From: Margaritifera margaritifera
Lineage: Eukaryota > Mollusca > Bivalvia > Unionida > Margaritiferidae
NCBI GenBank assembly: GCA_029931535.1
Contig: JAQPZY010001688.1
Span: 5,941,001-6,005,000, forward strand
Reading direction: 5' to 3'
DNA: 64,000 nt
This document shows positions 7,844-30,824 of the stretch, in pieces (within the stretch, counting starts at the first letter, position 1; each line of letters starts with the position of its first letter). Made by a program: the position numbers and the translations under genes. The notes beneath the pieces are model-generated. The model did not search any database and was not told where the DNA came from. It was given only the letters and a program-made list of their open reading frames with translations.

Positions 7844-7849
7844 CTTAGA
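7844..7849 (+). repeat. left target-site duplication CTTAGA
   Basis: The six bases CTTAGA sit directly before the first base of the left terminal inverted repeat. The same six bases follow the last base of the right one (23036-23041). A 6-bp duplication is the known hallmark of Polinton integration. Confidence 0.93.
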
Positions 7850-7958
7850 AGTAGTAGCTGGTGGGTATTGAGGCCCAAATGTTGGCACTTGAGACCCAAA
7901 CGGGAAATTAACATGGGTGGGCCTCTCTGGGCCCAAAACTGTCCTCCTATGGGAAATT
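7850..7958 (+). repeat. left terminal inverted repeat, 109 bp
   Basis: It begins AGTAGTAGCTGGTGGGTATT. All 109 bases are identical to the reverse complement of 22927-23035. Beyond base 7958 the two ends diverge after a few more partly matching bases. The inner half contains one complete 49-bp unit that is repeated further inside on this side only. Confidence 0.95.
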
Positions 7959-8185
7959 AACATGGGTGGGCCTCTCTGGGCCCCAAACTGTCCTCCTATG
8001 GGAAATTAACATGGGGGGGGGGCCTCTCTGGGCCCAAACTGTCCTCCTATGGGAAAATTAACATAGCGGGGCCTCTACAGACCCAAACGGGAATTTATCA
8101 TAGCGGGGTCACTTGAGAGCCATACGGGAGTTTAACGTGGCGGGGTCTCTCTGGGTACGTACGCGAGTTTAACATGGCGGGGGGT
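7902..8185 (+). repeat. degenerating 49-bp tandem array at the left end
   Basis: Units starting GGGAAATTAACATGGGTGGG begin at 7902, 7951, 8000 and 8051 (period 49-51). They are followed by progressively shorter and more divergent units at about 8089, 8126 and 8163 that keep a core like GTTTAACATGGCGGGG. The first unit lies inside the terminal inverted repeat. The right end has that unit and the first few bases of the next but no array, so expansion or loss happened on one side only. Confidence 0.85.
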
Positions 8186-8640
8186 TAATCTTTCTTGAAA
8201 AAGGGGTGGTCCTAATACGTCATCTACTATCCAAACACCCCACACTACACTATCCAACACGCCGTGTGTAGTGACCTTCTGCCTAGTGGCTATATCTATA
8301 TAGCCTAGAGTTGTATATAAAGCATTACCTATACCTCAGATCATGTTGGAGGTGTCAGTAAATTTGCATATATTGTACCTATGTTATAAATAGCTTTGAT
8401 CAAGGGAACTAACTTATAATAACACTAAAATGGACGTGACTAAATGTTGTATTAAACTTCGGGAACGGTCACGGACTTTAGCGTTGACTAGAAAAAATCC
8501 GGAACATTAGATTATAATGGCCTAGACTAAAAGTAACACTAAAATTCCGAAATCGTACCGGACGTTAGCGGAGACTGAAAATAATCCGAAAAAAAAATGG
8601 AAAAAATTGACGGAGACTAAAAAATAGTACTAAAATTTCG
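8186..8640. repeat. left subterminal non-coding DNA with degenerate repeats
   Basis: No gene is seen. From about 8417 to 8640 there are degenerate units built on TAACACTAAAATT, then a CGTACCGGACGTTAGCGGAGACT-like segment, then AAAATAATCCG. Three imperfect copies are recognisable. The area between them and the tandem array is unique sequence with TATATAAAG-like stretches near 8310. Any role in replication or transcription is unknown. Confidence 0.5.
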
Positions 8641-9000
8641 TAACTCATTTTAATTTTTTTTTGTTATTTTATATTTTTTTATATACAAACCCAAATAAAC
8701 CCAAAACCCAAACCCAAACCTAAGACACTATCCCAAATCTTTTTATTTTTTAAATTTTTTTTTATCAAAACACACACACACCACACAACCATTTTTTTTT
8801 ACTTTTTAAATTCTTTTATATATCAAACACAAAACTTACACACACTACACAAACTATTTTTTTATTTTTTAAATTTTGTTTATATCAAAACACACAACCA
8901 TTTTTTTTACTTTTTAAATTTTTATATCAAAACACACACCACAAATATACAATCCATTTTTTTTAAAAAAAATTTATTTGATGGACTGCAAAAATTGTTG
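8641..9000. repeat. left CA-rich/AT-rich subterminal array
   Basis: Imperfect repeats of about 60-70 bp alternate CAAAACACACACC-type blocks with A/T runs of the type TTTTTTATTTTTTAAATTTTT. The reverse complement of the same design occurs near the right end (22495-22862), so the element is symmetrical here beyond the perfect inverted repeats. No protein gene is supported. Confidence 0.6.
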
Positions 9001-9075
9001 TTGTTGTTGTCTTTGCTGCTGCTGCTGTTGGTGCTGTAGTCTATATCTTTCCTCCCAATTTTAGATCGATAGAAA
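8978..9075 (-). other. possible glutamine-rich coding remnant
   Basis: On the minus strand a CAG/CAA-rich tract would encode a short glutamine-rich tail (QQQQQ runs) ending in a stop near 8980, just downstream of the HNH gene on the same strand. No start codon or known domain can be assigned. It may be only a trinucleotide repeat. Confidence 0.2.
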
Positions 9076-9263
9076 GAGAGGGAAAGTGTTTTTTTGGTTT
9101 GGTGGGTAAAAAACAAACCACACAACACCATTCAGATATATACATCAATAATAATAATTATATTTTATTCAATGTATATGCATTATGTTACTCGTGGTAA
9201 TAAAACAATTTCATATAATTCCAATACAGTTCAATACACTTCCATATTTACCATTTCATTCTC

Positions 9264-10118
9264 TTATTGTTCTGACACTTCAGGAAGATTCTTGTCTACA
9301 ATTCTCTCATAACTTTCTTTTGGACTCTCATTGATAAACTCCAACTTAATAAAATGTCCATTATCATCTCGAATCCACCGCTCTTTTTTACAAATCTTGT
9401 AAACTTTACTATGATCTAATCCAAAACATCTTGCCACATCACAAATGGAATCCATCCGACTATATAATCCTGAATTCAAGTCAGTTAATTTCACAGGTCT
9501 CACAAATCCACTAGTTCCTTGACTCTTCTTCTCTGGCTCTTCCCATCTAGCTTGAAATCTTTTCTGGAACTTCTTCGAAAAGACCGACTTACAAATCCCA
9601 GTACAGCAATAGTAGACACTTCCTGTATGACAATCAAAATATTCAGCAGCCTTTTCCATACTTTCAAATCTTCTTTCCTGTGTCTCACCAACAAACTGGC
9701 ACAACACACTTCTATCACTTCCAAAATTAATTCTCCTTTTTTTTTTATCATTCTTCACATGTTTATGCAAACATGTTCGTTCACTAGCAGTCATCACTTG
9801 AAGATTTTCTATTCTATCATCATCAAGTACATCACTGAGATGTACCACTTCCCTCTGTCTTGGTAGATCCACTCCATTCACCGCTTCAAAGACAAATCTC
9901 CCTCGATTTGATTGTTTCTTCCTCTTTCCTTCCTTACCAGTAACCTTAATCTTTATCAATCCAAATGAATTCAAATTTCCTTTGACTTTCCTTCCATACT
10001 TCATATGATAGACATTACCAAGTATGTCAGCAGCATAATTATCATACACCTTATGAACATACTTATTCAATTCAATTCCAGTATCTTGACTTTTATCTCG
10101 AGCGCAGTACTTTTTCAT
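9264..10118 (-). CDS. HNH endonuclease with NUMOD1-type DNA-binding repeats (homing-endonuclease-like)
   Basis: The intact frame encodes 284 aa from the ATG at 10118; an upstream TTG is not needed. An HNH-type core lies at about residues 73-115: the block FVFEAVNG is followed by VVHLSDV with the candidate catalytic His, then DDRIENLQVMT with the conserved Asn. Two NUMOD1-like helix-turn-helix segments follow, at about 138-175 (ESMEKAAEYF) and 207-255 (SICDVARCFGL). This is the layout of phage and large-virus HNH homing endonucleases, which cut specific DNA sites and spread by repair. It is the only leftward gene in the element and is divergent from PolB with about 107 bp between the starts. 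It is one of the few uninterrupted frames. A copy of its last codons sits inverted at the right end (22863-22924). The family assignment is from motif order; the target site is unknown. Confidence 0.8.
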   Translation of the reverse strand: MKKYCARDKSQDTGIELNKYVHKVYDNYAADILGNVYHMKYGRKVKGNLNSFGLIKIKVTGKEGKRKKQSNRGRFVFEAVNGVDLPRQREVVHLSDVLDDDRIENLQVMTASERTCLHKHVKNDKKKRRINFGSDRSVLCQFVGETQERRFESMEKAAEYFDCHTGSVYYCCTGICKSVFSKKFQKRFQARWEEPEKKSQGTSGFVRPVKLTDLNSGLYSRMDSICDVARCFGLDHSKVYKICKKERWIRDDNGHFIKLEFINESPKESYERIVDKNLPEVSEQ

Positions 10119-10225
10119 CTTCACAGTTTGAACGTTCAATCACGACTAGTGATTCTGAGGGTAAGAAGGTCTATATGTATAGGTTCCCTGGGTGAAACTG
10201 AATCAGTTTCAAAGTAAACTTCAAG
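10119..10225. promoter_or_regulatory. divergent intergenic region between HNH gene and PolB
   Basis: These 107 bp separate the leftward nuclease gene from the rightward polymerase gene and must hold both start regions. A short imperfect palindrome, GTGAAACTGAATCAGTTTCAAAG, is seen at about 10192-10214 (GAAACTGAATCAGTTTC is a near-perfect dyad), which could be an operator-like or hairpin element. No clear TATA box is present. Function is inferred from position only. Confidence 0.4.
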
Positions 10226-11363
10226 ATGAAAAGATCACGCCGAAGCCATGAGAAACCAGAAGAAGACGAAGAAGAAGAAACAAAGAGGCCACGACGACGA
10301 AGACATTCCGTACCGCCTGAAACACCGCTAGATGAACTACTAGCTCAAGTCCATGCTAGTGACTTCGAAGAGGAGATGAGTGAACCTGAAACCCAAATTT
10401 CTAACCCACCCAAAACAAAATCCACCACCAGCACCACTACCAACACCATAACCCCTGATCAAAAAACACTACCTACTACCTTGGCTCCTCCTGAAAATTA
10501 CTATCGGATTCGAGAGACGGAAAAAATAACTTCTCGAAAATTTAAAACTACAGCTTACACTCACACTGTTCACTTTAAAGACTTCAAGTCCAAAGTACCT
10601 CCCGAGAAAGCGGCGGGGTTCATTAGCGATTTGTGGGATTCTGTCTTAATGAACTTGAAACGACAATGTGGAGCCAAAGAAGACGATCGATTGAGACTGG
10701 CTATTCATCATGACAATTTGAAGAGTCCTGTTTGGATCGAGTTCAGCACCCCGGCAGAATTAACGCCAGACAAAGTCATGTCCAAAATAGAACATGTTCA
10801 ACAATCGAACGACAAGTTTACCATCACCGATGGAAAGGCCACACTTTACTTGACTCACGTTTCCCCTCCTTGAGGAAGTGGACGAAGTAGGAAACCGTTA
10901 CTGGTGAACGATATTCGAAGTACCAAACGCAGTGTCGTCCAAATCGACAATACTCAAGACCAGATGTGCTTGGCTCGGGCTATTGTGGTGGGGCGAACGT
11001 ATGCCAACAAGAACGAGAGCAAAGAATGGAAAAGAGCCTGGAATAACATTCGACAGTCGGACAGAGCCAAACAACGAAACGAAGCAGAACTCCTGTTGCA
11101 ACAAGCAGGCATCCCTAACCAGCCAAGTGGTTAACTTTGAGGTTTTGAAAAATGCTTTACTGTCTGGACAAGTGGAAGACTTTCAAGTACCCACGTTAGA
11201 ACCTCACAAGATTGTACGACTACCTAATCATCAAATCGTGACTCGACCTGTTCAAAAAGTGTATCGTATTGTGTACCAAAAACGAGTGAGACTTCCAGAT
11301 CACACGACTTTACCTTACGGACACGTCAATTTGGAGGAGTATAAAAAAAGGAAACCGTCTTGA
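10226..11363 (+). pseudogene. PolB: protein-primed DNA polymerase B, catalytic core deleted
   Basis: Family role: protein-primed replication of the linear element DNA. The first frame (10226-10873, 215 aa) has an acidic/basic, Ser/Thr-rich N-terminus and then the conserved N-terminal block of Polinton PolB. An in-frame TGA at 10871-10873 interrupts it. The same frame continues to a stop at 11132-11134 and includes the family block with MCLARAIVVG. After about 11136 a different frame (to 11363) has a stretch with KVYRIVYQKRV and TLPYG that resembles the extreme C-terminus of such polymerases. Full-length relatives are about 1000 aa or more. Here the exonuclease and the polymerase motifs A, B and C (SLYP-, YG- and DTD-type) are absent from the whole element. 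So there is one nonsense codon plus a large internal deletion with its junction near 11115-11145. The N-terminal assignment is firm; the C-terminal one is moderate. Confidence 0.75.
11340..11349 (+). promoter_or_regulatory. candidate TATA box for IAP-like gene
   Basis: TATAAAAAAA lies 44 bp upstream of the ATG at 11384, inside the last codons of the polymerase remnant. Spacing fits a pol II TATA box with a short leader. Evidence is sequence and spacing only. Confidence 0.4.
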
Positions 11364-11383
11364 AGAGACACAACACCAAGAGG

Positions 11384-12482
11384 ATGACTTCAACATGGGC
11401 TTTACCTGACTATGGTGAGTGTGACAGTCGTTTGAAGACGTTCAAAAATTGGCCTAAGCACATGCCTGGCTATTGTTATTGTCCTCGTCGATGGAGCACA
11501 AAAAAACTTAGGAAAAAATGGATTACCTACTTCCTACTCTTTAGCCAGAGCAGGATTTGTTTACTTTGGACAGGGAACCAAAGTACAGTGTTTTAGTTGT
11601 GGTGCCACTATTCGTATGGATTGTAAGAAATCAGCTCTCCTGGAACATGTCAGATGGTTACCAAACTGTGCTTACCTTTCTTTAGCGTTTCCACGGATCA
11701 CATTACAATACTTTTCGGATGGTACAGTCGACAGGTATAAAAAAGGAACCCCTTCCAAGCCTAACCCTTCATTCTGACTTTCAACGTTAACCAAGCAAGA
11801 AGATGAGCATTTTGTCATCCTTCCACCAAACTTCAATAAGAGTACTCAAACTGCCACCCACCCACCACCATTACCAAGGGAGAAATCTAGTGGTAGTGTG
11901 AACTCCAAGGACTATCATCACGACTTGGAGTGTGATGCAGTATCATGCGATGAAACGGATTCTGTACGGTTTGGTATTCCCGATTCACACGTTCAAACGG
12001 ATTCCGTAGCTTGTAACATCTTGGATTCAGGACCCTCTCCAAGTCTCACCACCACCACCACTCATCGGCCACCCTCTAAAGAGGCAGTACGCCCTTTATG
12101 TTTTACTGGAAATACTAAAGGAACTGGTATTGACGTTAATGACAACAAGGTCAATGTTGGTCCATATTCGCATGTCAGAATACCTGTGAGTTTACTTGGT
12201 TATTCCAAGTATGAAAGTCGTCTGGAGTCATTCAAAGACAAGTGGCCAAAATATCTAGAAGGTCCTAAACCGGAAGGTTTAGCTAGATCTGAATTTAAAT
12301 ACGTGGGAGAAGGAGATAAAGTTCAATGTTTCAGTTGCGGTGTGAAACTTCACCAATGGGAGCCTACCGACTCAGCTTACATTGAACATGCCAGATGGTC
12401 TCCGCACTGTCAGTTTTTACCTTTAGTCGCCTTAGAACAGTACGGGTACGATGAGCCAGATGCCAAACAGAAGAAGAAGTAA
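11384..12482 (+). pseudogene. IAP-like protein with two BIR domains, frameshifted
   Basis: BIR-domain proteins bind or ubiquitinate apoptosis factors, and large DNA viruses and adintoviruses often carry them. BIR1 begins in the frame of the ATG at 11384 (SRLKTFKNWP), shifts frame at about 11465-11495 and continues with LARAGFVYFG, a CFSCG zinc pair and EHVRWLPNC. An in-frame TGA at 11775-11777 follows. The same frame then runs through a Ser/Pro/His-rich linker to BIR2 (about 12190-12430: SRLESFKDKWP, CFSCG, EHARWSPHC) and ends in a lysine tail at 12482. Both BIRs keep the C-x2-C ... H-x6-C zinc ligands. No RING domain follows BIR2. The gene has two lesions. Whether a two-BIR protein without a RING was the working form is inference. 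Confidence 0.8.
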
Positions 12483-12491
12483 AAAAATTCC

Positions 12492-12801
12492 ATGTCGGAG
12501 GAGAATACTTCTTCTTTAGAAGAATACGGAAACTTTACCAGAGTACATTCGTGGCTTGCATTTGGAAGTGCGCGAAAAGATTTACCAAGAGTTTGTCAAG
12601 ATCCAAGTGAAACGTAAACTCAAAGTCATTTCTCGAGCTGTACACTATACCCTCTTCCAAGGTCATAGTAGAATGATTATGGGAAACGTCTATCACAATA
12701 GCTACGTTCACGGAGACTTTCTCAAAAGGTACCAACCTTGGGAGCCTGGCTATAAAAAACATGCCACCCAAGATACCTACCTTTGCCATCGACCCCTATA
12801 A
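12492..12801 (+). pseudogene. unrecognised accessory gene, frameshifted
   Basis: An ATG at 12492 opens an acidic start (MSEENTSSLEEYG) that stops early. The coding-like remainder (about 12535-12801) is in the next frame: about 85 residues rich in basic and aromatic residues, including EVREKIYQEF and RYQPWEPGYKK. The shift lies at about 12520-12560. I do not recognise the family. Its position directly after the IAP gene and before a membrane-tailed gene puts it in the accessory block. It could be the N-terminal part of the following gene. Confidence 0.45.
12751..12760 (+). promoter_or_regulatory. candidate TATA box for the gene at 12811
   Basis: TATAAAAAAC lies about 60 bp upstream of the ATG at 12811, within the end of the preceding reading frame. 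A second TATAAAG at 12797-12803 is too close to the ATG to serve as its TATA box. Position-based call only. Confidence 0.3.
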
Positions 12802-12810
12802 AGAGTTGGC

Positions 12811-13742
12811 ATGCCTGCGCTGTACACGTCACTCGTGAAACGGATTCCGTGGAAGGAAGTCAACGATCATGTTCAGACCTTAGAGGATTATAAAAAAGTG
12901 ATACAAGAACTGTTTCCATTGAATTTTGGACGTTATGTGGTGTGTGTCTTAGTGACTGCTTATCTTGGAATTCGTTTTCCAGGACATTCGTTGTGGACTA
13001 TTTTTGAGGACAAGTGTTTGCCTTGGATTCTTTTGGAGGATCCGTGGTTGTTTTGGACTCAATTGTTGAGTTCCAAAAAACAATATGACCCTGTGTTCTT
13101 CTTCGGACTTAGTAGAAGAAAAAGACTATAAATATTTGATTTTATCAGTACAAGAAAGAAACATTGTACGTAAAGCGTTGAGAGTGGTCATGAAAATCAG
13201 TGAGGAACTTCCATGTGAAGAAGACATTTGTCACACTTTATCTGTTTATAAAACATTTCAAGAAGTGTGTTTTGCTAGTGAGTTACACCAACATCTTTTC
13301 AATTGGAAAGATGTACGTCCCTGGAGAAACCTTGGTTTCCAATATTGGCTACAACAAGTGGCTCAGTTTGCCAAAGATTTGGCAACATGTCCATAAGGGT
13401 CCAAAAGTGAAAAAATGGGAACCTCAATGGGAAACCCTGAAAGAAGAAAAAGAAGAAGAACCTGACACCACTGCTGTGGTTCAAATACCTCTTGAGGAAC
13501 ACAACCCTTCCTTGCCGCCGTCGTCAGAGGATTCTTCTACCAAAACAAAGAAGACCAGAAGAATACCACCACCCCAAACAGTGTCTGTGTCTTTCATTAC
13601 TAGGACACGAAAATATTGTTGTACATTGACTTGTTTAGAGATAACTTTAAATGTTTTAGTGGTAGTCTTCATTGTGTACGTGTTCATTTTAATTGCATAT
13701 TTTCTCACTAATTCACTTCTTCGTGTTCGTGTAAAGTTGTAA
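12811..13742 (+). pseudogene. tail-anchored accessory protein, possible Bcl-2-like, two frameshifts
   Basis: Three successive frames make a plausible single gene: 12811 to about 13090, about 13090-13396, and about 13390-13742. In the first frame LNFGRYVVCVLVTAYL followed about 20 residues later by LPWILLEDPWLFW resembles the BH1 (N-W/F-G-R) and BH2 (W-x-x-x-x-x-x-W) spacing of Bcl-2 proteins. The last frame has a Lys/Glu- and Pro/Ser-rich linker and a hydrophobic segment of about 25 residues (ITLNVLVVVFIVYVFILIAY) close to the C-terminus, as in tail-anchored Bcl-2 proteins. No BH3 motif is evident. Next to an IAP gene, an anti-apoptotic role is attractive but unproven. The alternative is an unrelated membrane protein. 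Two separate genes (12811-13131 and 13085-13742) are also possible. Confidence 0.4.
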
Positions 13743-13864
13743 AAAATATGTTTTTGTTGGTTGGTTGGTTGTTTTTTTTTTTTTTTAAAAAAAAAACGTG
13801 TATGAAAATGTATAAAATGTCTTGGGTTTTTTGTCTTCTTCTCAAAAATCTTCTTACCTCAGAC

Positions 13865-14608
13865 ATGGCTACATCATCTTCTTCTTCTACCTCGTCTACC
13901 TCCTCCTCTTCTGTGGTTAAAGTGATTGACGAAAAGTTAGATCGTCCCAGTTGGAACGCTTTGTATCTGTGCCATCCATTTAACATGTTGATTGCTGGAC
14001 CAAGTGGTTCAGGTAAAACCGAATTTGTCAAACGTTTGATCGAACACAAAGCTATTCTGTTCGATCGTCCACCTCAACGTATCGTGTGGTGTTACAAAGA
14101 GTGGCAAAAGTCTTACACGTTATTGAAAGAAAGTCAAGGAGAAACCATTTCGTTTATAGAAGGCATCCCTCACGAAGACGATGAAATTGTGTCTGACGTG
14201 AATCAAACCCATTTGGTTATTTTTGATGACATATTAGGAGAAGACGAAGAAGAAATTAAACTTTGGTTTACACGAAAAGGACACCATCGTAATGCTAGTA
14301 TTGTCTACATTACTCAAAATTTATTTCAACAAAGTAAAGCCCATCGAACCATCAGTCTGAATGCTCATTATGTGGTCTTGTTTAAAAGCCCCAGAGACAA
14401 ATCTCAAGTACAAGTGTTAGCCAAACAGTTAGGGGCTCCTTGGTTGAATTATGCGTACGACGATGCCACTCAAACCCCTCACGAGTATTTACTCATCGAC
14501 TTAAAACCCACCACTCCTGACTATTTGAGATTTCGTGCTCAATTGTTTCACCCTTGGGTTGAAGAAGGTGGTCCTGTCATTTACACGTCCCCTTCAGCCA
14601 ATTTTTGA
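13865..14608 (+). CDS. FtsK/HerA-type genome packaging ATPase
   Basis: This intact gene of 247 aa starts from the ATG at 13865 (context AGACATGG). The open frame extends upstream to 13748 through poly-F/poly-K coding of homopolymer runs, which is unlikely to be translated. After a Ser/Thr-rich leader, Walker A GPSGSGKT lies at residues 45-52 and Walker B LVIFDD at 117-122. A sensor-like TQN lies at 150-152. Family role: ATP-driven packaging of genome DNA into preformed capsids, as in Polintons, adintoviruses and other double-jelly-roll viruses. It stands first in the morphogenesis block, about 120 bp after the accessory gene. No missing key residue is evident, so among the core genes this one may still be functional. 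Confidence 0.88.
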   Translation: MATSSSSSTSSTSSSSVVKVIDEKLDRPSWNALYLCHPFNMLIAGPSGSGKTEFVKRLIEHKAILFDRPPQRIVWCYKEWQKSYTLLKESQGETISFIEGIPHEDDEIVSDVNQTHLVIFDDILGEDEEEIKLWFTRKGHHRNASIVYITQNLFQQSKAHRTISLNAHYVVLFKSPRDKSQVQVLAKQLGAPWLNYAYDDATQTPHEYLLIDLKPTTPDYLRFRAQLFHPWVEEGGPVIYTSPSANF

Positions 14609-14622
14609 AAGGAAAAAAAAAC

Positions 14623-14630
14623 TATAAAAA
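14623..14630 (+). promoter_or_regulatory. candidate TATA box for the gene at 14669
   Basis: TATAAAAA follows an A-run just after the ATPase stop codon and lies 46 bp before the ATG at 14669. This is one of the few true intergenic gaps in the right-hand gene block. Confidence 0.5.
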
Positions 14631-14668
14631 CAACCTACTACGTCATTTCTGTCTCACACTCTTTTGAG

Positions 14669-15525
14669 ATGGCTTCCTTTCAACCTCATCCTTCGGCTAA
14701 ATTGATTCGTGCCTTGTATGGTATCAGTCGTGAAAAAAATGCACAAGTCCGTGCTCATTTGTTAGAAGCGAGTCTTAAAGAAGTGTTAAGATGGTTTACT
14801 TTGACAGCACGTCAATTACTACAAGGCATCATTCACATCCCTCATCAAACTCAACTTTTGTTCAAAGACATAAAGCGGCATTGTCACAACTGGCTGATCC
14901 TAGAATCGATTCACGGACTAAAAAACAAATCATTTTAACTCCTGGTGGAAGTGGTTCTTTAGGAGGGGTTATGATTCGTTCCCTTTTGAAATGGGATCCT
15001 AATGCCCAAGCCAAAAAACCCAAATCACCCAAAAAGAAGAAAGCCACAAAGAAAAGTCGTGCCAAGAAGAAGAAAACAACACCTACCACTAGCACCCGCC
15101 GTAAGAGAGGAACTGCTGCAGCCAGGAAAACGTACACCCGCAAGACACCACGACAAACAACCGTGACGAGGTCTCCTTCTCCTTCGTCCCCATCATCTTC
15201 ACCACCCTTCACGATGATGCCTGCCAAAACAGACTTAAGTCCCGTGTTTCCTAATTTGATGCAAAAATGGAAACCTATTTCAAAAGTCACCCCGTCGGGA
15301 CCCTCGACGACATCGGCTGATTTGGCTATGGCAGCAGCCACCAACAAAGTACCTTCCCCTAAAACCAACGTCCAAGAAAGAACTGGTATCTTACAAAGTT
15401 TACTGGATTTATCCAAAGAAGAATTGAGACGATTTAATCCCTTGAAAACACCTCAACGTCGAGTGATGCCTGTCGTGAAGTTGGTACGTCGTGCAGACAA
15501 TCAGTGGAGACGTATTCCAGTGTAA
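14669..15525 (+). pseudogene. basic, DNA-binding-like virion protein, frameshifted (paralogue of next gene)
   Basis: The N-terminal part is in the frame of the ATG at 14669 (MASFQPHPSAKLIRAL ... ARQLLQGIIHIP). The rest is in another frame up to 15525 (from about 14860, RHKAALSQLADP, then LTPGGSGSLGGVMIRSLL, then a long Lys/Arg/Ser/Thr-rich tail). The shift is near 14850-14870. The order leucine-rich helix, QLLxGxIxIP, RHKxxL, Gly-rich hydrophobic segment parallels the next gene (VLKGTVPLS, KHRNVLRQ, QRGGFL), so the two look like diverged duplicates. The very basic tail with SPKK-like motifs suggests DNA condensation or a core protein. That role is inferred, as no enzyme motif is visible. Confidence 0.6.
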
Positions 15526-15575
15526 AATAGAAGGGTACCCTGCCAGAGACTTCAGACTTACTCCTCACCTCTAAG

Positions 15576-16010
15576 ATGGCTCCCAAACGTGCACACCACA
15601 ACTACCTCCACCAAAAAAAGAAGAAAAGTAAAACCACCAAAAAAGGACGACTTCCCCCTCGTCTAGCCAAACATTGGGATGTCTTGTCTGTCTTGACCAA
15701 ATCCAATCCTCCCATGCAAAAACAACTCATTCAAACAGCCCCTAATGAAATCAGCGATACCGTGTGTGAATGTTGTTTGAACGTGTTGAAAGGAACGGTA
15801 CCTTTGTCCAAGATACAAAAACAAAAATTAGGGAAACATCGGAATGTGCTTCGTCAAATGGTGAAAAAGAAAATACCTCTTCAACAAAAGAAAAAAATGT
15901 TGGTGCAACGAGGAGGATTTCTACCTATGCTGTTAGGACCGTTGTTAAAAATAGCAGCTCCTTTGTTAGGAACGATTGCTGGACCGCTTTTAGGAGGGGT
16001 CATGCGATAA
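15576..16010 (+). CDS. small basic protein with C-terminal hydrophobic Gly-rich segment (conserved Polinton-type hypothetical)
   Basis: This intact frame encodes 144 aa. A Lys-rich N-terminus (about residues 1-35) is followed by a helical stretch with a CECCLNVLKGTVPLS block (about 65-80), a basic segment (KHRNVLRQMVKKK) and QRGGFLPMLLGPLLKI. The hydrophobic end is LLGTIAGPLLGGVMR. I recognise the block order from uncharacterised proteins in invertebrate Polinton-like elements. A virion core or minor capsid (adenovirus pX/pVI-like) role is inferred from composition and position. It sits 50 bp after the previous gene and about 70 bp before the next. Confidence 0.65.
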   Translation: MAPKRAHHNYLHQKKKKSKTTKKGRLPPRLAKHWDVLSVLTKSNPPMQKQLIQTAPNEISDTVCECCLNVLKGTVPLSKIQKQKLGKHRNVLRQMVKKKIPLQQKKKMLVQRGGFLPMLLGPLLKIAAPLLGTIAGPLLGGVMR

Positions 16011-16081
16011 CCAAAAAAAAGAAGATAAAAAGGACCACCCTTCTCTGAAAAGACCACACCTTTTTGGTACCTTTGGATGAA

Positions 16082-16738
16082 ATGGAAGGACGAAAACTGA
16101 CTTTAGTACCTTACAAACGATGGATGGAATTTCATCGTTGGAACGAACAACGGATACCTCATTTACCACCCAATCCTAATCTCAACGAGATGTCCCAGTT
16201 ACAACAAGAATTACAAACCCTGATGGAACGAAGCGATTTGTCAGAAACAGAAAAATCGCAACGGTACGGTCAACTTTTACAACGTCTACAACTCTTTCAC
16301 CAAAAAGCTGTAGACGAAACAGCTCCACCCACTCTGAGAGATTTTAAGACGATGATGAAAAGCGAACCTAAAGTGACCACCACTAAAACAGACACCGGTA
16401 CGGGGACGACAGAAGACAACGAGCTTCGAGAAGTTTTTCAAACTCCGTCTGCTGGCATACCTAGTCAAATTGCAGCTTCCTTCTTGACACCCTCACCTAC
16501 TCCACATCGAGAAGCCATGAAAGCTTGGGTTCGTAAGAAGATGTCCACTCCTTCTTCAGCAGAAGAAAAAAAGAAAGACAGCAAGACTGAAGTGAAAAAA
16601 GACACCACCAAGAAGAAACCTACCATCATTACCCCTTCTTCACTACCCACTCCTGTGGCTCGTCGAACGCGTCAAGCCGCTTCGTCCAAACCTCACGACA
16701 CTCAAAGTAGTAGCATCGAACAGTGGGTAACTTATTGA
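16082..16738 (+). CDS. conserved Polinton-type hypothetical, Lys/Ser/Thr-rich C-terminus
   Basis: The ATG at 16082 gives 218 aa; a TTG at 16064 is in frame but is not the likely start. The N-terminus (EGRKLTLVPYKRW) precedes a helical region of about 45 residues with LQTLMERSDLSETEKSQRYG, matching an uncharacterised family I recall in these elements. The second half is low-complexity (Thr/Ser/Lys/Pro) and ends IEQWVTY. No enzymatic motif is seen. Its position between the basic proteins and the integrase suggests a virion or assembly accessory. The frame is intact, with no lesion seen. Confidence 0.55.
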   Translation: MEGRKLTLVPYKRWMEFHRWNEQRIPHLPPNPNLNEMSQLQQELQTLMERSDLSETEKSQRYGQLLQRLQLFHQKAVDETAPPTLRDFKTMMKSEPKVTTTKTDTGTGTTEDNELREVFQTPSAGIPSQIAASFLTPSPTPHREAMKAWVRKKMSTPSSAEEKKKDSKTEVKKDTTKKKPTIITPSSLPTPVARRTRQAASSKPHDTQSSSIEQWVTY

Positions 16739-16750
16739 GGAATCATTTAG

Positions 16751-17865
16751 AAACTTTTAGCTACCATTTATTACAATCCTGGTCATGCTGCTGGTTACGG
16801 AGGAGTTCAAAAATTATATCGAGCTGCTAAAAGTAAATTGAAAAGTGTACGTTTACCCGAAGTACGACGATGGTTACAAGAACAATCGACGTACACGTTA
16901 CACAAACCCATTCGACGTAAATTTTCTAGAAGTACCACTCAAGTGGAAGGCATCGATCATCAATGGGAAGCCGATTTAGCCGACGTCTCTCATTTAGCCA
17001 CTTACAATCGTGGTCACAAATATTTGTTTTGTGTCATCGATGTGTTTTCCAAATTTGCTTGGGTCGTGCCTTTGACCTCTAAAAGCAGTACCGAATTGGT
17101 ACGGGCCTTAAAATTGGTCTTGAAACAAAGTGGACGTCAACCTTTACGATGGCAAACTGACAAAGGCACCGAATTTCTAAACCAAGCTTTTCAAAAAGAA
17201 TTGAAACAAAGACAAATTCATTTTTTTACTACCGAAAATCCTGAAACCAAAGCCAGTATCGTGGAACGTTTTCAAAGAACTTTGAAAGAACGCATGTGGA
17301 AATATTTTACACATCAACATACTCTCAAGTACATCGACGTGTTACCTCGTTTGGTCAAAGCGTACAATCAATCGTACCATCGTAGCATCGGATGTGCCCC
17401 CGAAGAGGTCAGCCCTGAAAACGAAGTGTCCGTATTTGATAAATTATTTGGTTCACCCCAGAAAAAAAGAAGAAGAAGAAGACACCCTTGTTGGAGTTAA
17501 AGACAGGAGATTGGGTTCGCATCGGAAAAACCAAACGCACTTTTGACAAAGGTTATTTACCCAACTGGACTACCGAATTGTTTCGTGTCACTACCCCCGT
17601 CCGTGGACGTGATCCTCCCGTCTATAAATTGGAAGACATGCACGGTGAAGTACTCAAAGGAACATTTTACTTGCCTGAGTTACAACGAGTGACCAAAAAA
17701 GAAGACGTCTTGTACGACATCGAAAGCATTCTCGAACAAAGAACACGGAAAGTAGGTAAACGTCGAATAGAAGAAGTCAAAGTACGTTGGAAAGGATATC
17801 CCCCTAGTTTTGATTCTTGGATTGCTGCTTCTCAAGTCGTCGACTATAAAAAGAAAAAGAAGTAA
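16751..17865 (+). pseudogene. INT: rve-type integrase with C-terminal chromodomain, frameshifted, start lost
   Basis: The open frame begins after a stop at 16748 and has no ATG before the conserved beginning (TIYYNPGHAAGYGG); the likely start position holds ATT. The catalytic core holds the acidic triad in WEADLADVS, TDKGTEF and IVERFQ (34 residues between the last two). The first frame ends at 17500. Around 17460-17485, in an A/AG-rich purine run, the reading shifts. The second frame (to 17865) carries an SH3-like segment (LKTGDWVRIGK) and a chromodomain (YDIESILEQR, VRWKGYPPSFDSW) with a lysine end. Family role: strand transfer that yields 6-bp duplications, with the chromodomain probably biasing target chromatin. 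Two lesions are seen; the frameshift could be an assembly error because it lies in a low-complexity run. Confidence 0.9.
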
Positions 17866-17874
17866 ACTAACAAC

Positions 17875-18324
17875 ATGCCATTCAACACAGCAGCAACCCA
17901 GACTTCAACGACTCCTTCACAGAGTTCTTCTCTTCAAGAATTACAAAAACAACCACTTTGGGTGTGGTGTGGAGAACGTGTGCCTAAAAATCAAATCGTC
18001 TTTTTCTGCCAAATCTTTGTAGTGTATTGTGTCATCGGAGCAGCTATTACCAATTTGAGTTTACAACAAGGAGACAAACAATTGTGGACCATTTTACTTA
18101 GCAGTTGCATCGGTTATCTTTTACCTAATCCCTCTTTGAAATTTACGACGACGACAGACAACAGCAGCCATAGTAACAACCACGGTAGTTCAACCAACGC
18201 CAGTTCACCTTCTTCTTCGTCCAGTCACCACCACAATACCAGTCCTCTTTTGGAACCCTTTGAACATCATTCTTCTGTTCACTTGAGTGACTCCTCGGAC
18301 ACCAGAATCACCTTAGAACTATGA
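17875..18324 (+). CDS. two-helix membrane protein, conserved in Polinton-like elements
   Basis: This intact frame encodes 149 aa. After a Ser/Thr-rich leader and a WVWCGERVPKNQ block (about 29-40) come two hydrophobic segments at about 41-62 and 70-84. The second ends in SSCIGYLLPNP. The rest is Ser/His/Asn-rich and probably cytosolic or intravirion. I recognise the pattern from uncharacterised proteins of these elements, but the function is unknown. The stop overlaps the start of the penton gene (ATGA at 18321-18324), which suggests tight transcriptional coupling. A role in membrane passage or virion-membrane interaction is only a guess. Confidence 0.6.
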   Translation: MPFNTAATQTSTTPSQSSSLQELQKQPLWVWCGERVPKNQIVFFCQIFVVYCVIGAAITNLSLQQGDKQLWTILLSSCIGYLLPNPSLKFTTTTDNSSHSNNHGSSTNASSPSSSSSHHHNTSPLLEPFEHHSSVHLSDSSDTRITLEL

Positions 18325-19269
18325 ATGACCAATTTTATTTAACGTTACCCAGTGACAGTTCCATGGATGTGTTTCCCAACAACAAATTATGTTGTTTCAC
18401 GGCCAAATTACCTCAGGCCTTCCAATTGGATCACGACGCTCATTGGGAAGTGGCTTTGGTAGAAATCATTCATCCTACGCAAATCAAGAATGTGTCTGGA
18501 AATCAAACCATTTTTGACGTAGCAATCTATAACGAAAAAGTGCAAAAAGAGTTGGACGCTCATGATCCTGAAATTGGGAAAAAAATGAGTTCAAAAACTG
18601 ACTATACTCCCTACTCGACCTATCGCATGAGAATTCCTGAAGGGTATTATTTTAGTGCTCACGATTGCGGCCGTCTTCGAAGCCCAATTTGGCAAAGCCT
18701 TGGAAAAAAAAAAATGGGTAGAGATCAAATACCATCCTGTGGCACGCCGTTTCCTCTTGCAATTTTTGAAAGGGCATGAGGGAAAGCCATTCGACGAGAA
18801 AGAAGACAAACACTTACCCGCGCACGAAAGAAAATTCATGACCATCGGTTTTTCTGCTGGGTTGTTTGATATTTTGGGTGGAAATAAAACGTATCATGGT
18901 GAACGAACAATCCACACCAACACAGATTTCGGACAGGCTTTTCGCACCCCTATCGAATTGAACGTTGGACTGAATTTAATGTTTGTGTACTCCGATGTGG
19001 TGGAGTACAACGTGGTGGGCCACACAGCTGCTCCCTTACTGAGAGTCATTCCTTTCAAAGTGGATACTGCTGCTGGTGCGAACGAAGAAGGTGGAAACAC
19101 GTTTCACGTTCACCGTGAATTTGTACATCCTCATTATCTTCCAGTCAGTAAATCGTATTTTGACAGTGTCAACATTAGTATAAAAGGAGATTTGGGACAA
19201 GATGTACCATTCATTGACAAAGGAAAAGTCACGGTGAAACTACATTTTCGAAAAAAACAAGTTCTCTAA
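18321..19269 (+). pseudogene. penton-like minor capsid protein, frameshifted
   Basis: The first frame starts MNDQFYLTLPSDSSMDVFPN and contains HWEVALVEIIHP and EGYYFSAHD. The second frame (productive from about 18665) continues to 19269 with a block ending APLLRVIPF and with YDS/IDKGKVTVKLHF-type C-terminal features. This order is that of the single-jelly-roll minor capsid (penton-base-like) protein of Polintons and adintoviruses, which forms the capsid vertices. The shift of one reading frame lies near 18660-18670, not in a long homopolymer, so it is more likely a real mutation. The start overlaps the previous stop codon. Confidence 0.82.
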
Positions 19270-19296
19270 CGAATTGTAACTGACCCAAACAAAAAA

Positions 19297-19752
19297 ATGT
19301 ATCCAGTGCACCAAGGAGTGACTCGACAACGAGGACATGGTTTAGGAGATATGTTAAAATCAGCATTTCGGATGGTAGCTCCTATTTTGAAACCGATGGT
19401 GACTCGAGGATTTCATGCCTTAAAAGATGCTGCTTTGGCACAAGGAAAAGAATTTTTGCAAAATGTCCTCATCGACAAACAAAATCCAAAAGAAGTCTTT
19501 ATGAGAGCAGGCAAAAATGTGTTGATGACCACTGGTAAAGATCTTTTAGGTCTCCAAGAAAATCCTATAAATACGCTTCACGCTTCAGACCCTGGCATTA
19601 CTTCTTCCTCCACTTCACAGCAAGGACAAGGTAGAAAGAGACGACGACATCGAAATCCCTTCAAAGTTCATAAAAGAACACACGGCAGTAGTTCCAGAAA
19701 GAATAAGAAGAGAAGAAGAACCGTCAGAGAATTAGACGTGTTTGATTATTAA
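19297..19752 (+). CDS. basic core or pX/pVI-like virion protein
   Basis: The intact frame encodes 151 aa, and its ATG directly follows a run of A. The N-terminus contains GHGLGDMLKSAFRMVAPIL, a glycine/hydrophobic amphipathic helix as seen in adenovirus-type membrane-lytic or cement peptides. The C-terminal 50 residues are Arg/Lys-rich (RKRRRHRNPF, KNKKRRRTVRE) and suit DNA binding. It sits between the penton and major capsid genes, the usual place for a processed core or minor capsid protein. A cleavage site for the element's protease is likely but not identified. Confidence 0.6.
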   Translation: MYPVHQGVTRQRGHGLGDMLKSAFRMVAPILKPMVTRGFHALKDAALAQGKEFLQNVLIDKQNPKEVFMRAGKNVLMTTGKDLLGLQENPINTLHASDPGITSSSTSQQGQGRKRRRHRNPFKVHKRTHGSSSRKNKKRRRTVRELDVFDY

Positions 19753-19765
19753 CTGTGAAAAAAAA

Positions 19766-21116
19766 ATGATGCACCGAGATTCTTGCGAATGTACCAAGTC
19801 AGAACTGGAACTGTTTTCTATGCCTCCTACCATGATGACGATGCAAGAATCCCAATGGGTGGAATTTCATCCTGTATCGTCTTTGACGGAATCAGCTCCT
19901 ATCGAATTTGAAATCAAAGGACAAACCGAAGATTACATCGATCTGAATAACAGTTACTTGTACCTGAAACTTCAAGTACAAAAAAATGACAACACCCTTC
20001 CTGGGGAAGCTGCCCGAGTGGCACCCGTCAATAATTTCATGCATTCCTTGTTCAGCGGAGTAGATTTGTACTTGAATAACAAACTGGTCAGCAGCAGTTT
20101 GGATACTTACCCTTACCGTGCTTATTTGGAAAATCTCTTGACGTACGGAAAAGAAGCCAAGAACACTCATCTGGATGCTTCGGTGGTCTGGAAACCTGAC
20201 ACCTCGGAAAAGTTCAACGACACAGAGCCGTCAATACCGGCGAAGACTTCTGCTAATGATGGTGATCCTATAATTCCAGCAGTCCCGCACAATGTGGGAT
20301 TTAACGACCGTCGAAAGAAAATCAGGCAAAGTTTAGAACTGATGGATCGTTTGCATTTGGACATGTGGTTGCAAGACAAGTATTTGCTCAATGGAGTCTA
20401 TGTACGCCTGAGACTGAATCGCAGTAGTGCCGCCTTCCATTTGATGGCTCATGCTAACGAGTGGAAAACCAAAATCCAAGAAGCCAAACTTTTACTTGCG
20501 ACGTGTAGAAATCTTACCAAAAGTAGCCAATGACATCAGTCAATCCTTGAGCGGAACCACTGCCAAGTATCCTGTGCGACGTGTGGAAGTGAAAACCTTT
20601 ACCATAGCCGCTGGACTCCGATCCAAAGTCGAAGATCACATCTTCCAAGGACATCTCCCCAAACGTTTGCTGATTGGCATCGTCAGTAATGCAGCCCTCA
20701 ACGGAGTCCACGATCAGAATCCGTTCGAGTTTAAACACTACAACGTCTCCAAGATAGAAGTCAGTCGAGATGGCAAGACCTTGTGTACCAGACCTTTTGA
20801 ACCTAACTTTGGTGTCCAGAAAAATTACTTACGATCTTACCTGAGCCTGTTTGAAGCCACGGGACAGTTAGGTCGCGACACCAGCCACGGCATTTCGTAC
20901 GAGGATTATGCAGGAGGGTATGCCTTGTGGGGATTTGATTTCACTCCTGACCAAGGCAGCGATGAAGGACATTTCCACCCTATAAAATCAGGCCCACTTC
21001 GTGTGGAACTTCAGTTTGCAGATCCTCTACCTGACACAGTGAACGTCGTCTTGTATGCAGAATTTGATAACACTCTAGAAATCAACAGTTTGAGAGAAGT
21101 GATTCTAGACTATTAG
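19766..21116 (+). pseudogene. MCP: double-jelly-roll major capsid protein, frameshifted
   Basis: The ATG at 19766 follows an A8 run; the in-frame TTG at 19742 is an unlikely start. The first frame carries the family blocks WVEFHPVSSLTESAPIEFEI, YIDLNNSYLYLKL, HSLFSGVDLYLNNKLVSS and YPYRAYLENLL, plus LDMWLQDKYLLNGV, that is, the first jelly roll and linker. Near 20490, at a TTTT run, the reading moves to another frame. That frame holds YPVRRVEVKTF, LPKRLLIGIV, FNFK-like HYNVSKIEV, a YEDYAGGYALWGFDFTPD block and the end VVLYAEFDNTLEIN, that is, the second jelly roll, through 21116. Family role: hexon-like capsomers of an icosahedral shell. Only one break is seen and it is at a short homopolymer. 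Confidence 0.9.
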
Positions 21117-21155
21117 AAGAAGAAAAAAAAGATGTAACACGTAGAAGAAGAACCT

Positions 21156-21662
21156 ATGGAGATAGATGAGGGATTTTGTGAGAAGTCACAAACTACCACA
21201 AATGATGATGATGACGAAGTCATTCATTCAGAACCTAAAACCGAGTTTACTGGATTTATTTCTCGATGGCCAGAACAAGAAAAACAGTTAGTGACCTGTT
21301 ATGCTCAGGAATTGAGTGACATCATTTACAGTCTGAGTGAAAAACAATGTCATGGATGTCAAATCGATCATCCCAGTCAGATACAACACGACCAATGTAT
21401 GATGTTGACAGGTGAAGAACAATTGGACAACTATTTGGAAACGGCTTGGTCCCAGAACTCGGACGAAAAAGTGTTGAAACAGTGGTATAAAGTCTTGGTG
21501 AATTCTTCCTTTCCTCCACTCACTCCTCTGGAGATCAGACGCATCGAAGGGTTCATTCAGCAGAGTACAGAAACTATCCGCCGTGAATATTCGTGGAATT
21601 ACAAGACAGATCAATTCAAGTTTAAAGTCAGGTGTGAATTGGTGACTCATTATTTCCATTGA
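21156..21662 (+). CDS. hypothetical protein with Cys/His cluster
   Basis: This intact frame encodes 168 aa. The acidic leader (TTNDDDDEV) is followed by a conserved-looking middle with QCHGCQIDHPSQIQHDQC, a C-x2-C-x3-H-x6-H-x2-C arrangement that could bind zinc. A helical C-terminal half follows. I recall proteins with this cluster next to capsid and protease genes in related elements but know no function. It lies 40 bp after the capsid gene and 34 bp before the protease gene. Confidence 0.55.
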   Translation: MEIDEGFCEKSQTTTNDDDDEVIHSEPKTEFTGFISRWPEQEKQLVTCYAQELSDIIYSLSEKQCHGCQIDHPSQIQHDQCMMLTGEEQLDNYLETAWSQNSDEKVLKQWYKVLVNSSFPPLTPLEIRRIEGFIQQSTETIRREYSWNYKTDQFKFKVRCELVTHYFH

Positions 21663-21695
21663 AGACAAAAAAAAAAAAGAAGAAGAAAGAAAAAA

Positions 21696-22270
21696 ATGGA
21701 TACTAGAGAACTTTATTACCTATTGACTCGTAGTTCCTACACTTCTTCTTGGAATCCTGTGGTATGTGCTAAAGATGAACTACCTCATCGTAAACCGAAA
21801 AACGTTCATGCCTATATCATCAATACCGACGACAGTCATCTACCAGGAACCCATTGGGTTGCCGTGTACTTTCCCAACGATCACAATGGTGGAAGTGTGA
21901 ATTTTTTTATTCTTATGGATTACCTCCTTTGGAAGACGACATCATCGAGTTTATGAGAAGAAATGCCGTCTCGACTCGATTCAATAATGTTAGATTACAA
22001 GGATCGGATTCCATGGTGTGTGGACAATATTGTGTTCATTATCTTCATCAACGCAGTCTTGGATATTCCTTAGAACATTTACTGACTTGGTTTGATAGAA
22101 ACTATGCTCGAAACGATGCTAAAGTACAACGATGGTTTTGTGAACATTTTGGTTATCTCTTGTCTTTAGCTCAGAAGCGTAATGTTAATCAGAATGATGT
22201 AGATGTAGAAAGGTGGAGGTTTAGTTTACCACCCCAACGTTGTCAACCTTGTAAATATGTTCCTGTTTAA
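21696..22270 (+). pseudogene. PRO: adenain-type cysteine protease, frameshifted
   Basis: The first frame starts at the ATG at 21696, directly after an A-run, and holds the catalytic-His block GTHWVAVYF (His53). At a T7 run near 21900-21907 the reading shifts. The second frame has FFYSYG (region of the acidic residue), then LQGSDSMVCGQYC with the oxyanion Gln and catalytic Cys, and continues to 22270. The order His, Asp/Glu, Gln, Cys is that of the adenovirus-type (C5/Ulp1-like) protease that matures virion proteins. It is the last gene before the right terminal DNA. The break is in a homopolymer, so an assembly error is a real alternative. Confidence 0.88.
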
Positions 22271-22494
22271 TATCTTGTTCATTGTTAGTTTTTATGTTAG
22301 AATGGTTATTGTTGATTTTAAAAAAATGGTTATTGTTGAAAAAAAATATGGTGTTGTGTGGTTTTTTATTGAATTTGAAATAATAATGATTATGTTCTAT
22401 CTCTCTCTTTCTATCGAACTGAAGTCACCCCCCCCCCCCTCTATCTATTATCTCACTGTCGATCTGAACCCTATTTTTAGGTCTGCGCAATAGA
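22271..22494. other. non-coding DNA after protease gene
   Basis: No gene is seen. The stretch TGGTTATTGTTGA is repeated twice around 22302-22340, and a C10 run lies at about 22429-22438. A polyadenylation signal is not obvious immediately downstream of the protease stop. The short frame here is AT-rich noise. Confidence 0.5.
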
Positions 22495-22862
22495 TGGTGT
22501 GGTGTATGTGTTAGGATAAAAAATAAAAAATTTAAAATAAAAAATGGGCGTGTGGAGTGTGTTTGTATAGAGTGTGTTTGTGTTTTTTTTTTTTTTAAAT
22601 AAAAATATAAAAAAATTAAAATTAAAAAGGTGTTGTGTGTGTGTGTGTGTGTTTGTGTTTGATTTAAAAATAAAAAATAAAAATGGTTGTGTGGAGTGTG
22701 TTTGTATAGAGTGTGTTTGTGTTTTTTTATAAAAAAAAATAAAAAATAAAAAATTTTAAAATGGTTGTGTGGTGTGTGTTTGTATAGAGTGTGTTTGTGT
22801 TTTGTTTTTTTTTTTTTTTTTTTTTTAAAAAAAATTAAATAAAAAATAAAAAAAAGGACTTG
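22495..22862. repeat. right GT-rich/AT-rich subterminal array
   Basis: Four imperfect units of about 80-90 bp share GTGTGTTTGTATAGAGTGTGTTTGTGTTTT-like cores separated by A/T runs (AAATAAAAAATAAAAA). This is the reverse-complement design of the array at 8641-9000, so both element ends have matching subterminal composition. Confidence 0.65.
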
Positions 22863-22924
22863 TCAAAAAAGGAAGTGGATTAGAGATGATAATGGACATT
22901 TTATTAAGTTGGAGTTTATCAATG
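22863..22924 (+). pseudogene. inverted copy of the HNH gene tail
   Basis: Bases 22883-22924 are identical (42 of 42) to the reverse complement of 9329-9370, the part of the HNH gene encoding DDNGHFIKLEFIN. The match weakens but continues to about 22863. The reading frame is preserved for about 20 codons and then runs into the terminal repeat. It is a remnant of a longer duplicated element end. Confidence 0.85.
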
Positions 22925-22926
22925 TC

Positions 22927-23035
22927 AATTTCCCATAGGAGGACAGTTTTGGGCCCAGAGAGGCCCACCCATGTTAATTTCCCGTTTGGGTCTCAAGTGC
23001 CAACATTTGGGCCTCAATACCCACCAGCTACTACT
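22927..23035 (-). repeat. right terminal inverted repeat, 109 bp
   Basis: The reverse complement is identical to 7850-7958 at every position. It ends ...CCAGCTACTACT at 23035. Confidence 0.95.
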
Positions 23036-23041
23036 CTTAGA
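23036..23041 (+). repeat. right target-site duplication CTTAGA
   Basis: It repeats the six bases at 7844-7849 that precede the left end. Confidence 0.93.
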
Positions 23042-30140: not shown

Positions 30141-30515
30141 CTGAAAATGTGATAGTAGAGAGGCGATTAATGATATAAAAAACGATGTTCCGCCAAAGTT
30201 TGGGTTTCCATTTTTAAATCAGATGAGTGACTATAAGAAAACAGACAAAAATGCAACGGTAACTTTTTTTTATCGACATCTGCATGGTATCGTTGCAGAT
30301 GTTAACAGAAGGATAAGAGACACCAGATTCTCTCTCTCATAGTGAGCAAAAAATGGGTTTACTTTCTTCTCAGAGACTCTTTGTTTTTCGTTTTCCTCTA
30401 TTTCTATATTATATGTGCATTTTAAGACAAAAGATATTTCTCTGGGGATAAAGTCTTGGAATGTTTCTTATGGGAATGAGCTTGAGATATTCAACTACAA
30501 GAGTACGATTCTTAC

Positions 30516-30736
30516 CCAATAATCCTATTATCATCTAATCCAAATCCGTTCGTCCTCAAACTGGAAAAATCATCAGAATTGTAAACAGTTTGTGTCCGCT
30601 TTCCGAATCCGTGTGCAATTCTATCTGCCACTGCAGCACGGAACCCACGTTTGTGCCTGGATTTAATGTCTGTGGGTAATGACAGGACCAATCCGCAGCA
30701 CACAATACAAATTGTTACACTCCACACAGTATTCAT
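30516..30736 (-). CDS. AT: allatotropin precursor, coding exon 1 (signal and mature peptide)
   Basis: Allatotropins are amidated neuropeptides that act on a GPCR to drive muscle, gut and reproductive functions in protostomes. From the ATG at 30736 a hydrophobic signal peptide (residues 1-20, SVTICIVCCGLVLSL core) leads to a short spacer ending in KR (29-30). The peptide GFRAAVADRIAHGF (31-44) follows, with amidation Gly45 and the dibasic KR (46-47). The GFR start, the RIxHGF end and the 14-residue length are typical of lophotrochozoan allatotropins. The exon closes at a GTAAG donor (30515-30511) in phase 2. Upstream, an acceptor TTGTCCAG suggests a 5'-UTR exon boundary at about 30757. The open frame extends upstream through an (AAT)n tract, but that part is not translated. 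The full protein is predicted at 118 aa. Confidence 0.9.
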
Positions 30737-30764
30737 TTTTTCTCTTTTTCCTGTTTCCTGGACA

Positions 30765-30765
<1 letters not shown>

Positions 30766-30823
<58 letters not shown>
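30766..30823. repeat. (AAT)n microsatellite at splice acceptor
   Basis: About 19 AAT units. On the minus strand these are T-rich and lie directly upstream of the TTGTCCAG acceptor, so they take the place of the polypyrimidine tract of the allatotropin exon. Confidence 0.95.

Positions 30824-30824
<1 letters not shown>

What the first reader, a model, noticed from the sequence alone, without database searches (positions are those of the whole stretch)
7844..23041. Complete Polinton/adintovirus-like element with exact ends in a mollusc-like genome
The sequence shows a 6-bp duplication (CTTAGA), AG...CT ends, 109-bp inverted repeats with no mismatch and a full set of Polinton core genes. Exact boundaries are seldom resolvable by eye and give a well-defined reference copy for this lineage.
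Basis: partly seen in the sequence, partly recalled or inferred. Interest (0 to 1): 0.85.

Follow-up and report, generated by a model that had tools for sequence, protein, structure and literature searches.

The report
Polymerase-less Polinton that multiplied
The element is one of several hundred copies of a virus-like mobile element that lost most of its own DNA polymerase gene yet kept spreading through an animal genome, probably by borrowing the polymerase of full-length relatives.

Summary
The ends are real: a 15,186-bp insertion (7850-23035) with AGTAGT/ACTACT termini, a 6-bp CTTAGA duplication and a 114-bp inverted repeat with one mismatch. It is not a complete Polinton. About 3.0 kb of the PolB gene is missing at window 11117/11118, judged against three longer relatives in the same genome. 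That exact junction occurs at 393 places in the 2.45-Gb host assembly. Ten of 13 sampled junction copies have matching 6-bp duplications, all different, so the deleted form itself transposed. Capsid-gene changes shared between deleted copies show purifying selection (N:S 8:17); changes private to one copy look near neutral (109:44). Three terminal-repeat types each occur on both 15-17-kb and 20-24-kb elements, although deleted copies are otherwise nearly alike. I read this as a capsid-encoding, polymerase-less satellite lineage copied in trans by PolB-bearing relatives, with which it exchanges ends. Trans-replication and end exchange are inferred, not shown. The window copy is dead: integrase, capsid and protease-like genes each lie in two frames, and its right end seems about 1 kb short. 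A mollusc host is plausible, not proven.

The parts
7844..7849 (.). left 6-bp target-site duplication CTTAGA
7850..7963 (+). left terminal inverted repeat (114 nt, pairs with 22922-23035)
7902..8076 (+). about 3.5 tandem units of 49 bp beginning inside the left terminal repeat
9264..10118 (-). HNH endonuclease-like ORF, 284 aa; seen in deleted copies, not found in the 5' part of three long relatives
   Evidence: (PF13392, 3.4e-06)
10226..10873 (+). N-terminal piece of PolB, 215 aa, ended by an in-frame stop
   Evidence: aligns with the start of the long relatives' PolB
11117..11118 (.). deletion junction: 2,987-3,032 bp of PolB missing compared with L002, L005, L008; 2-bp microhomology
11118..11363 (+). 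remnant of the PolB C-terminal end
11436..12482 (+). two BIR (inhibitor-of-apoptosis) domain frames
   Evidence: PF00653, 4.2e-11 and 4e-21
13748..14608 (+). A32-type packaging ATPase, 286 aa
   Evidence: (PF04665, 1.8e-07)
16751..17865 (+). rve integrase (16751-17497) and chromodomain (17443-17862) in two different frames
   Evidence: (PF00665 2.1e-13; PF00385 1.1e-07)
18321..19269 (+). unassigned conserved gene in two frames (position suggests a minor capsid protein; no family match)
19766..21116 (+). major capsid protein gene in two frames
   Evidence: fold of a homologue
21696..22270 (+). protease-like gene in two frames; assignment from a recalled motif only
   Evidence: no Pfam match to the piece scanned, no PDB match
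22857..22924 (+). fragment of the HNH gene's 3' part next to the right terminal repeat
22922..23035 (-). right terminal inverted repeat
23036..23041 (.). right 6-bp target-site duplication CTTAGA

Best explanation
The window holds one dead copy of a non-autonomous Polinton lineage. One ancestral deletion of about 3.0 kb removed the exonuclease and polymerase part of PolB from a full-length element, and the deleted form then multiplied to several hundred copies by ordinary insertion with 6-bp duplications. Shown: the deletion, the same junction at 393 places, separate insertion of the sampled copies, PolB-bearing relatives in the same genome, selection on the capsid gene within the deleted lineage, and terminal-repeat types common to both size classes. 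Inferred: PolB of full-length relatives copies the deleted genomes in trans from compatible terminal repeats; the lineage keeps its own capsid, packaging and integration genes for its own spread; ends are exchanged with helpers while both replicate in one cell.
For: Junction against three long relatives, gap 3030/2987/3032 bp. Junction at 214+179=393 places, 0 in the reversed-pattern control; 40 of 40 scored junction places printed as 100% identical. Ten of 13 sampled copies with matching and mutually different 6-bp duplications, sizes 16,078-16,597 bp. PolB loci in the genome: 75 scored of 5572 candidates, 150 matches all over the Pfam cut-off, open frames 576-1470 aa; PolB seen inside relatives of this family in L002, L005, L008 and C79. 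Capsid changes shared 8N:17S against private 109N:44S, Fisher p=4e-4; BIR2 shared 13:14 against private 71:17, p=0.002; PolB remnant 17:6, as expected without selection. Capsid tree: 22 junction copies plus L010 apart from six long copies. Three terminal-repeat types on both size classes: 4/9, 7/5, 7/6.
Against: No direct observation of replication, transcription or particles. With only the ten complete copies plus the window the shared/private contrast in the capsid gene weakens to 4:8 against 50:30, Fisher p=0.07. In 17 of 25 shared capsid variants the minority codon also occurs in a long copy, so some may be ancestral or recombined rather than new. Clade support is moderate, 0.775. PolB presence was seen in only 4 long elements; the rest are called long by size. 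PolB-intact copies were never counted (search not answered). Only 11 of 20 sampled copies have a single full capsid frame.
Confidence: 0.75

Rival explanations
1. The deleted lineage no longer needs Polinton PolB: a host or other polymerase copies it, perhaps with the kept 215-aa N-terminal piece as primer protein or the HNH enzyme as a nicking factor.
For: The N-terminal piece is complete in 14 of 20 sampled copies; the HNH ORF is present in the deleted class and was not found in the 5' part of three long copies.
Against: HNH changes look neutral (14:4 shared, 66:22 private) and the N-terminal piece shows no significant selection (8:6, 48:25); HNH is 284 aa in only 10 of 20; terminal-repeat types are common to long relatives.
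Confidence: 0.12
2. The deletion spread from element to element by recombination or gene conversion among autonomous copies, or arose several times, rather than in one multiplying lineage.
For: Ends clearly recombine or turn over quickly; 17 of 25 shared capsid variants have the minority codon in a long copy.
Against: Same breakpoint at base level in 393 places; capsid genes of 22 junction copies fall in one group apart from six long copies.
Confidence: 0.07
3. Copies were spread by duplication of chromosome segments, not by transposition.
For: High copy number with high identity at the junction.
Against: Ten different, matching 6-bp duplications directly at the element ends.
Confidence: 0.02
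4. One reading: a complete, potentially autonomous Polinton/adintovirus.
For: Exact ends, integrase, ATPase, capsid gene.
Against: PolB catalytic part deleted and several genes in two frames.
Confidence: 0.02

Closest known systems
Polintons/Mavericks of animals (Barreat and Katzourakis 2021, PMC8097293; passages seen)
   Same: AGT-type ends, 6-bp duplications, integrase, packaging ATPase, capsid gene; the paper also reports hundreds of PolB-broken copies in axolotl and tuatara and calls them perplexing
   Different: There PolB is described as broken by stops and frameshifts and the amplification is left open; here one exact deletion precedes hundreds of insertions
Adintoviruses (definition seen in passages of PMC11071296; original paper not held)
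   Same: integrase with C-terminal chromodomain, adenovirus-like virion gene set, long relatives with a PolB
   Different: PolB, part of the definition, is deleted; alpha or beta class was not tested
Non-autonomous DNA transposons in general (recalled)
   Same: works like a deletion derivative moved in trans by an autonomous relative
   Different: keeps most coding capacity, including a capsid gene under selection, and lacks chiefly the replicase
Polintons without capsid genes (Krupovic et al. 2014, PMC4028283; passages seen)
   Same: gene loss within Polintons
   Different: the reverse case: capsid, ATPase and protease lost there, polymerase lost here

Membership tests
Polinton/Maverick | terminal inverted repeats with AG...CT ends and 6-bp target duplication | tested here: met
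   ten of 13 sampled copies
Polinton/Maverick | rve integrase | tested here: met
   PF00665 2.1e-13, PDB retroviral integrases; gene lies in two frames in this copy
Polinton/Maverick | protein-primed PolB | tested here: not met
   catalytic part deleted in the window copy; met in long relative L002 (PF03175 7.3e-37)
Polinton/Maverick | double jelly-roll major capsid protein | tested here: met
   window piece 78% identical to P0121, whose model (pLDDT 87.4) matches PBCV-1, Sputnik and mavirus capsid proteins; the window gene itself lies in two frames
Polinton/Maverick | A32/FtsK-type packaging ATPase | tested here: met
   PF04665 1.8e-07
Polinton/Maverick | adenain-like cysteine protease | tested here: inconclusive
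   no Pfam match or PDB match to the piece tested; motif recalled only
Adintovirus | PolB with N-terminal OTU-like domain | tested here: not met
   deleted in the window copy
Adintovirus | integrase with C-terminal chromodomain | tested here: met
   PF00385 1.1e-07, in a different frame from the integrase core in this copy
Adintovirus | hexon recognisable by BLASTP against adintovirus references | not tested
   no reference adintovirus hexon was fetched
Non-autonomous (satellite-like) element | defective form itself inserted at several sites | tested here: met
   ten different matching 6-bp duplications
Non-autonomous (satellite-like) element | mobilised by a helper's polymerase | not testable with these tools
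   only indirect signs: PolB-bearing relatives and terminal-repeat types in common

The most novel reading that the evidence does not exclude
A virion-encoding satellite of Polintons: a lineage that gave up its polymerase because relatives resident in the same animal genome supply it, keeps its own capsid and anti-apoptosis genes under selection, and stays compatible by swapping terminal repeats with whichever helper is active.
Probability: 0.4. Interest if true: 0.8.

Novelty: new variant of a known kind. Interest (0 to 1): 0.62.

Why it matters
PolB-defective Mavericks occur by the hundred in some animal genomes, and the cause was called unclear in print (PMC8097293, passages). Here the defect is one exact event followed by hundreds of insertions, so the question whether defective Polintons multiply in trans becomes directly testable. 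Selection on the capsid gene of a lineage without a replicase would be evidence that particles, not only transposition, matter for these elements.

Tried and rejected
Rejected: complete Polinton (PolB deleted); passive duplication (different 6-bp duplications). Led nowhere: viral-contig scans with the ATPase and an integrase piece found no relative (2 of 8 scans used); Rfam found nothing in the window at gathering thresholds; no tRNA; no paralogous empty site; PDB search with the first capsid piece gave one weak match of no meaning, E 0.031; HNH search gave one remote relative, E 8.6e-5. Selection on the 215-aa N-terminal piece was not significant. PolB-intact copies were not counted and the host species was not identified.

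That no lineage of this sort is described rests on the listings (the last: six phrases for non-autonomous or defective Polintons/Mavericks, 0 papers) in an open-access library. Repbase may name non-autonomous Polintons (recalled, not checked).
Full report
Observation. The insertion is real and its ends are exact: inverted repeat 7850-7963 / 22922-23035, 114 nt, 99% complementary; AGTAGT...ACTACT ends and CTTAGA on both sides. The element is 15,186 bp, 40% G+C in a window of 34%.

Gene content. Thirty stop-to-stop frames (29 in the element, one just outside) were scanned against Pfam one by one. Main matches: HNH endonuclease, two BIR domains, A32-type ATPase, rve integrase, chromodomain. There was no PolB match. 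The first capsid piece has 294 homologues at E up to 0.001 (120 listed), a few named F54H12.2-like. A homologue, 78% identical to that piece, was modelled with mean pLDDT 87.4 and matches double jelly-roll capsid proteins of PBCV-1, Sputnik and mavirus. Integrase/chromodomain, an unassigned gene at 18.3-19.3 kb, the capsid gene and a protease-like gene each lie in two frames, so this copy is dead.

The deletion. The host assembly has 2.45 Gb in 1696 contigs. For the window's terminal-repeat type 13 inverted pairs were found among the scored places, the window's own included: 4 of 15.2-16.7 kb and 9 of 20.8-23.7 kb. Left halves of the 12 other pairs were fetched. Three long ones were oriented with PolB in the stretch (L002, L005, L008): the two window pieces that meet at 11117/11118 are 3030, 2987 and 3032 bp apart there. 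L002 has an open PolB frame with PF03175 at 7.3e-37; in L005 and L008 the PolB region is split over frames. C625 (L009) carries the window's junction, 98.6% over 1405 bp. The N-terminal piece ends at an in-frame stop in the window and in L009.

Copy number and separate insertion. A 200-base probe over the junction gave 40 places, all printed as 100% identical and spanning the junction; only 40 of 4113 first-look candidates were scored. A 41-base pattern with up to three mismatches gave 214 + 179 = 393 places and none for the reversed control (100 places listed). Twenty junction copies were sampled on the 5' side, 19 of these plus C350 in the capsid gene and 13 at the right end. Ten of 13 show the same 6-mer on both sides, ten different 6-mers. 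C1635, C989 and C509 did not show a right end in the stretch fetched; C509 was later seen as a 16,782-bp pair whose right end lies just outside that stretch. The ten measure 16,078-16,597 bp. So the deleted form itself transposed.

State of genes in sampled junction copies. Capsid: one frame of 443-450 aa in 11 of 20. N-terminal PolB piece: whole in 14 of 20, ending at the same place in 16 of 20. HNH: 284 aa in 10 of 20. A frame of 113-188 aa across the junction is open in 17 of 20.

Selection. Changes found in one copy only should be mostly post-insertion; changes shared by copies arose while the lineage was active. Capsid, 22 junction copies: shared 8 N: 17 S (omega 0.16, p=7e-6), private 109:44 (0.82), Fisher p=4e-4; with a higher transition weight 0.19 against 0.97. 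With the ten complete copies plus the window only: 4:8 against 50:30, Fisher p=0.07. BIR2, 22 copies: 13:14 against 71:17, Fisher p=0.002. HNH (14:4 against 66:22) and the PolB remnant (17:6 in all) look neutral; the N-terminal PolB piece (8:6 against 48:25) is inconclusive. Codons with more than one difference were left out. In 17 of 25 shared capsid variants the minority codon also occurs in a long copy, which fits ancestral variation as well as recombination.

Phylogeny. In a capsid tree 22 junction copies and L010 (16.7 kb, junction not tested) group apart from six long copies, support 0.775. Measured to L033 and to the window, deleted copies differ by 1.1-3.8% and long copies by 8.6-12.3%.

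Terminal repeats. In 17 deleted copies the first 120 bases match at a median of 68% (136 pairs), whereas window 10226-11500 matches at a median of 97.8%. Each copy tends to repeat its own short core motif in successive units (by eye). L007 (23.4-kb pair) and L009 (16.2 kb, deleted) have their first 103 bases in common at 97%; the PolB of L007 was not seen. Three types searched genome-wide occur on both size classes, shorter/longer pairs: 4/9; 7/5 plus one of 29.5 kb; 7/6 plus one of 18.5 kb (capped lists). A junction is known in 11 of the 18 shorter pairs and listed in none of the 20 longer ones, but one search lists only 100 of 393 places (zero mismatches, contigs up to C421); two shorter pairs (C79, C297) lie on listed contigs without a zero-mismatch junction. 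The simplest account is exchange of ends between classes; fast turnover of the repeat arrays is not excluded.

PolB in the genome. PF03175 gave 150 matches at 75 scored candidates of 5572, all over the cut-off, with open frames of 576-1470 aa. One lies inside the C79 element of this family; the others may belong to other Polinton families.

Mechanism. PolB copying from terminal repeats, capsid genes and rve insertion are established for the family (PMC4028283, PMC11071308, PMC8097293; passages only). A genome with intact ends can be a template for a relative's PolB. I therefore think that deleted genomes are copied by PolB of full-length residents, packaged with their own or common capsid proteins, and integrated. 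Copying in trans and packaging are inferred.

The window copy. It groups with C1635 and C509, is about 1 kb shorter than the ten complete copies, and has an HNH fragment directly beside its right repeat; five of 13 other right-end stretches also hold an HNH fragment.

Relation to print. Barreat and Katzourakis report hundreds of PolB-broken Mavericks in axolotl and tuatara and call their amplification perplexing (passages). Krupovic et al. report Polintons without capsid genes (passages). Six phrases for non-autonomous or defective Polintons/Mavericks gave no paper in the held open-access library.

Noticed in passing
L002:3576-8195 (+): The PolB frame of this long copy runs on without a stop into a BIR domain (1540 aa; PF03175 and PF00653). 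In L008 PolB end and BIR lie in different frames, so the fusion may be a lost stop.
   Followed up: partly
window 9264-10118 (-); L002:2964-3479 (-); L008:3009-3320 (-): Where deleted copies have the HNH ORF, L002 has a zinc-knuckle ORF (PF00098). The first dozen residues of the window's HNH ORF resemble those of the L008 ORF by eye, as if the HNH gene had been inserted into it.
   Followed up: partly
G000:C79:540267-560669: Five terminal-repeat hits on the + strand spaced about 5.1 kb apart beside a 21.6-kb element, perhaps a tandem array of one element end.
   Followed up: no
L013-L032, across the deletion junction: The deletion creates a frame of 113-188 aa open in 17 of 20 copies, ending in the PolB C-terminal residues.
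   Followed up: no
G000:C512:966879-996356 and C1229:285956-304435: Terminal-repeat pairs of 29.5 and 18.5 kb that fit neither size class.
   Followed up: no
window 37236-37622 and 55299-55497: Tandem arrays of 43-bp and 25-bp units outside the element.
   Followed up: no
window 30515-31042 (-): Weak LMBR1-like match below Pfam's cut-off, perhaps a host exon.
   Followed up: no
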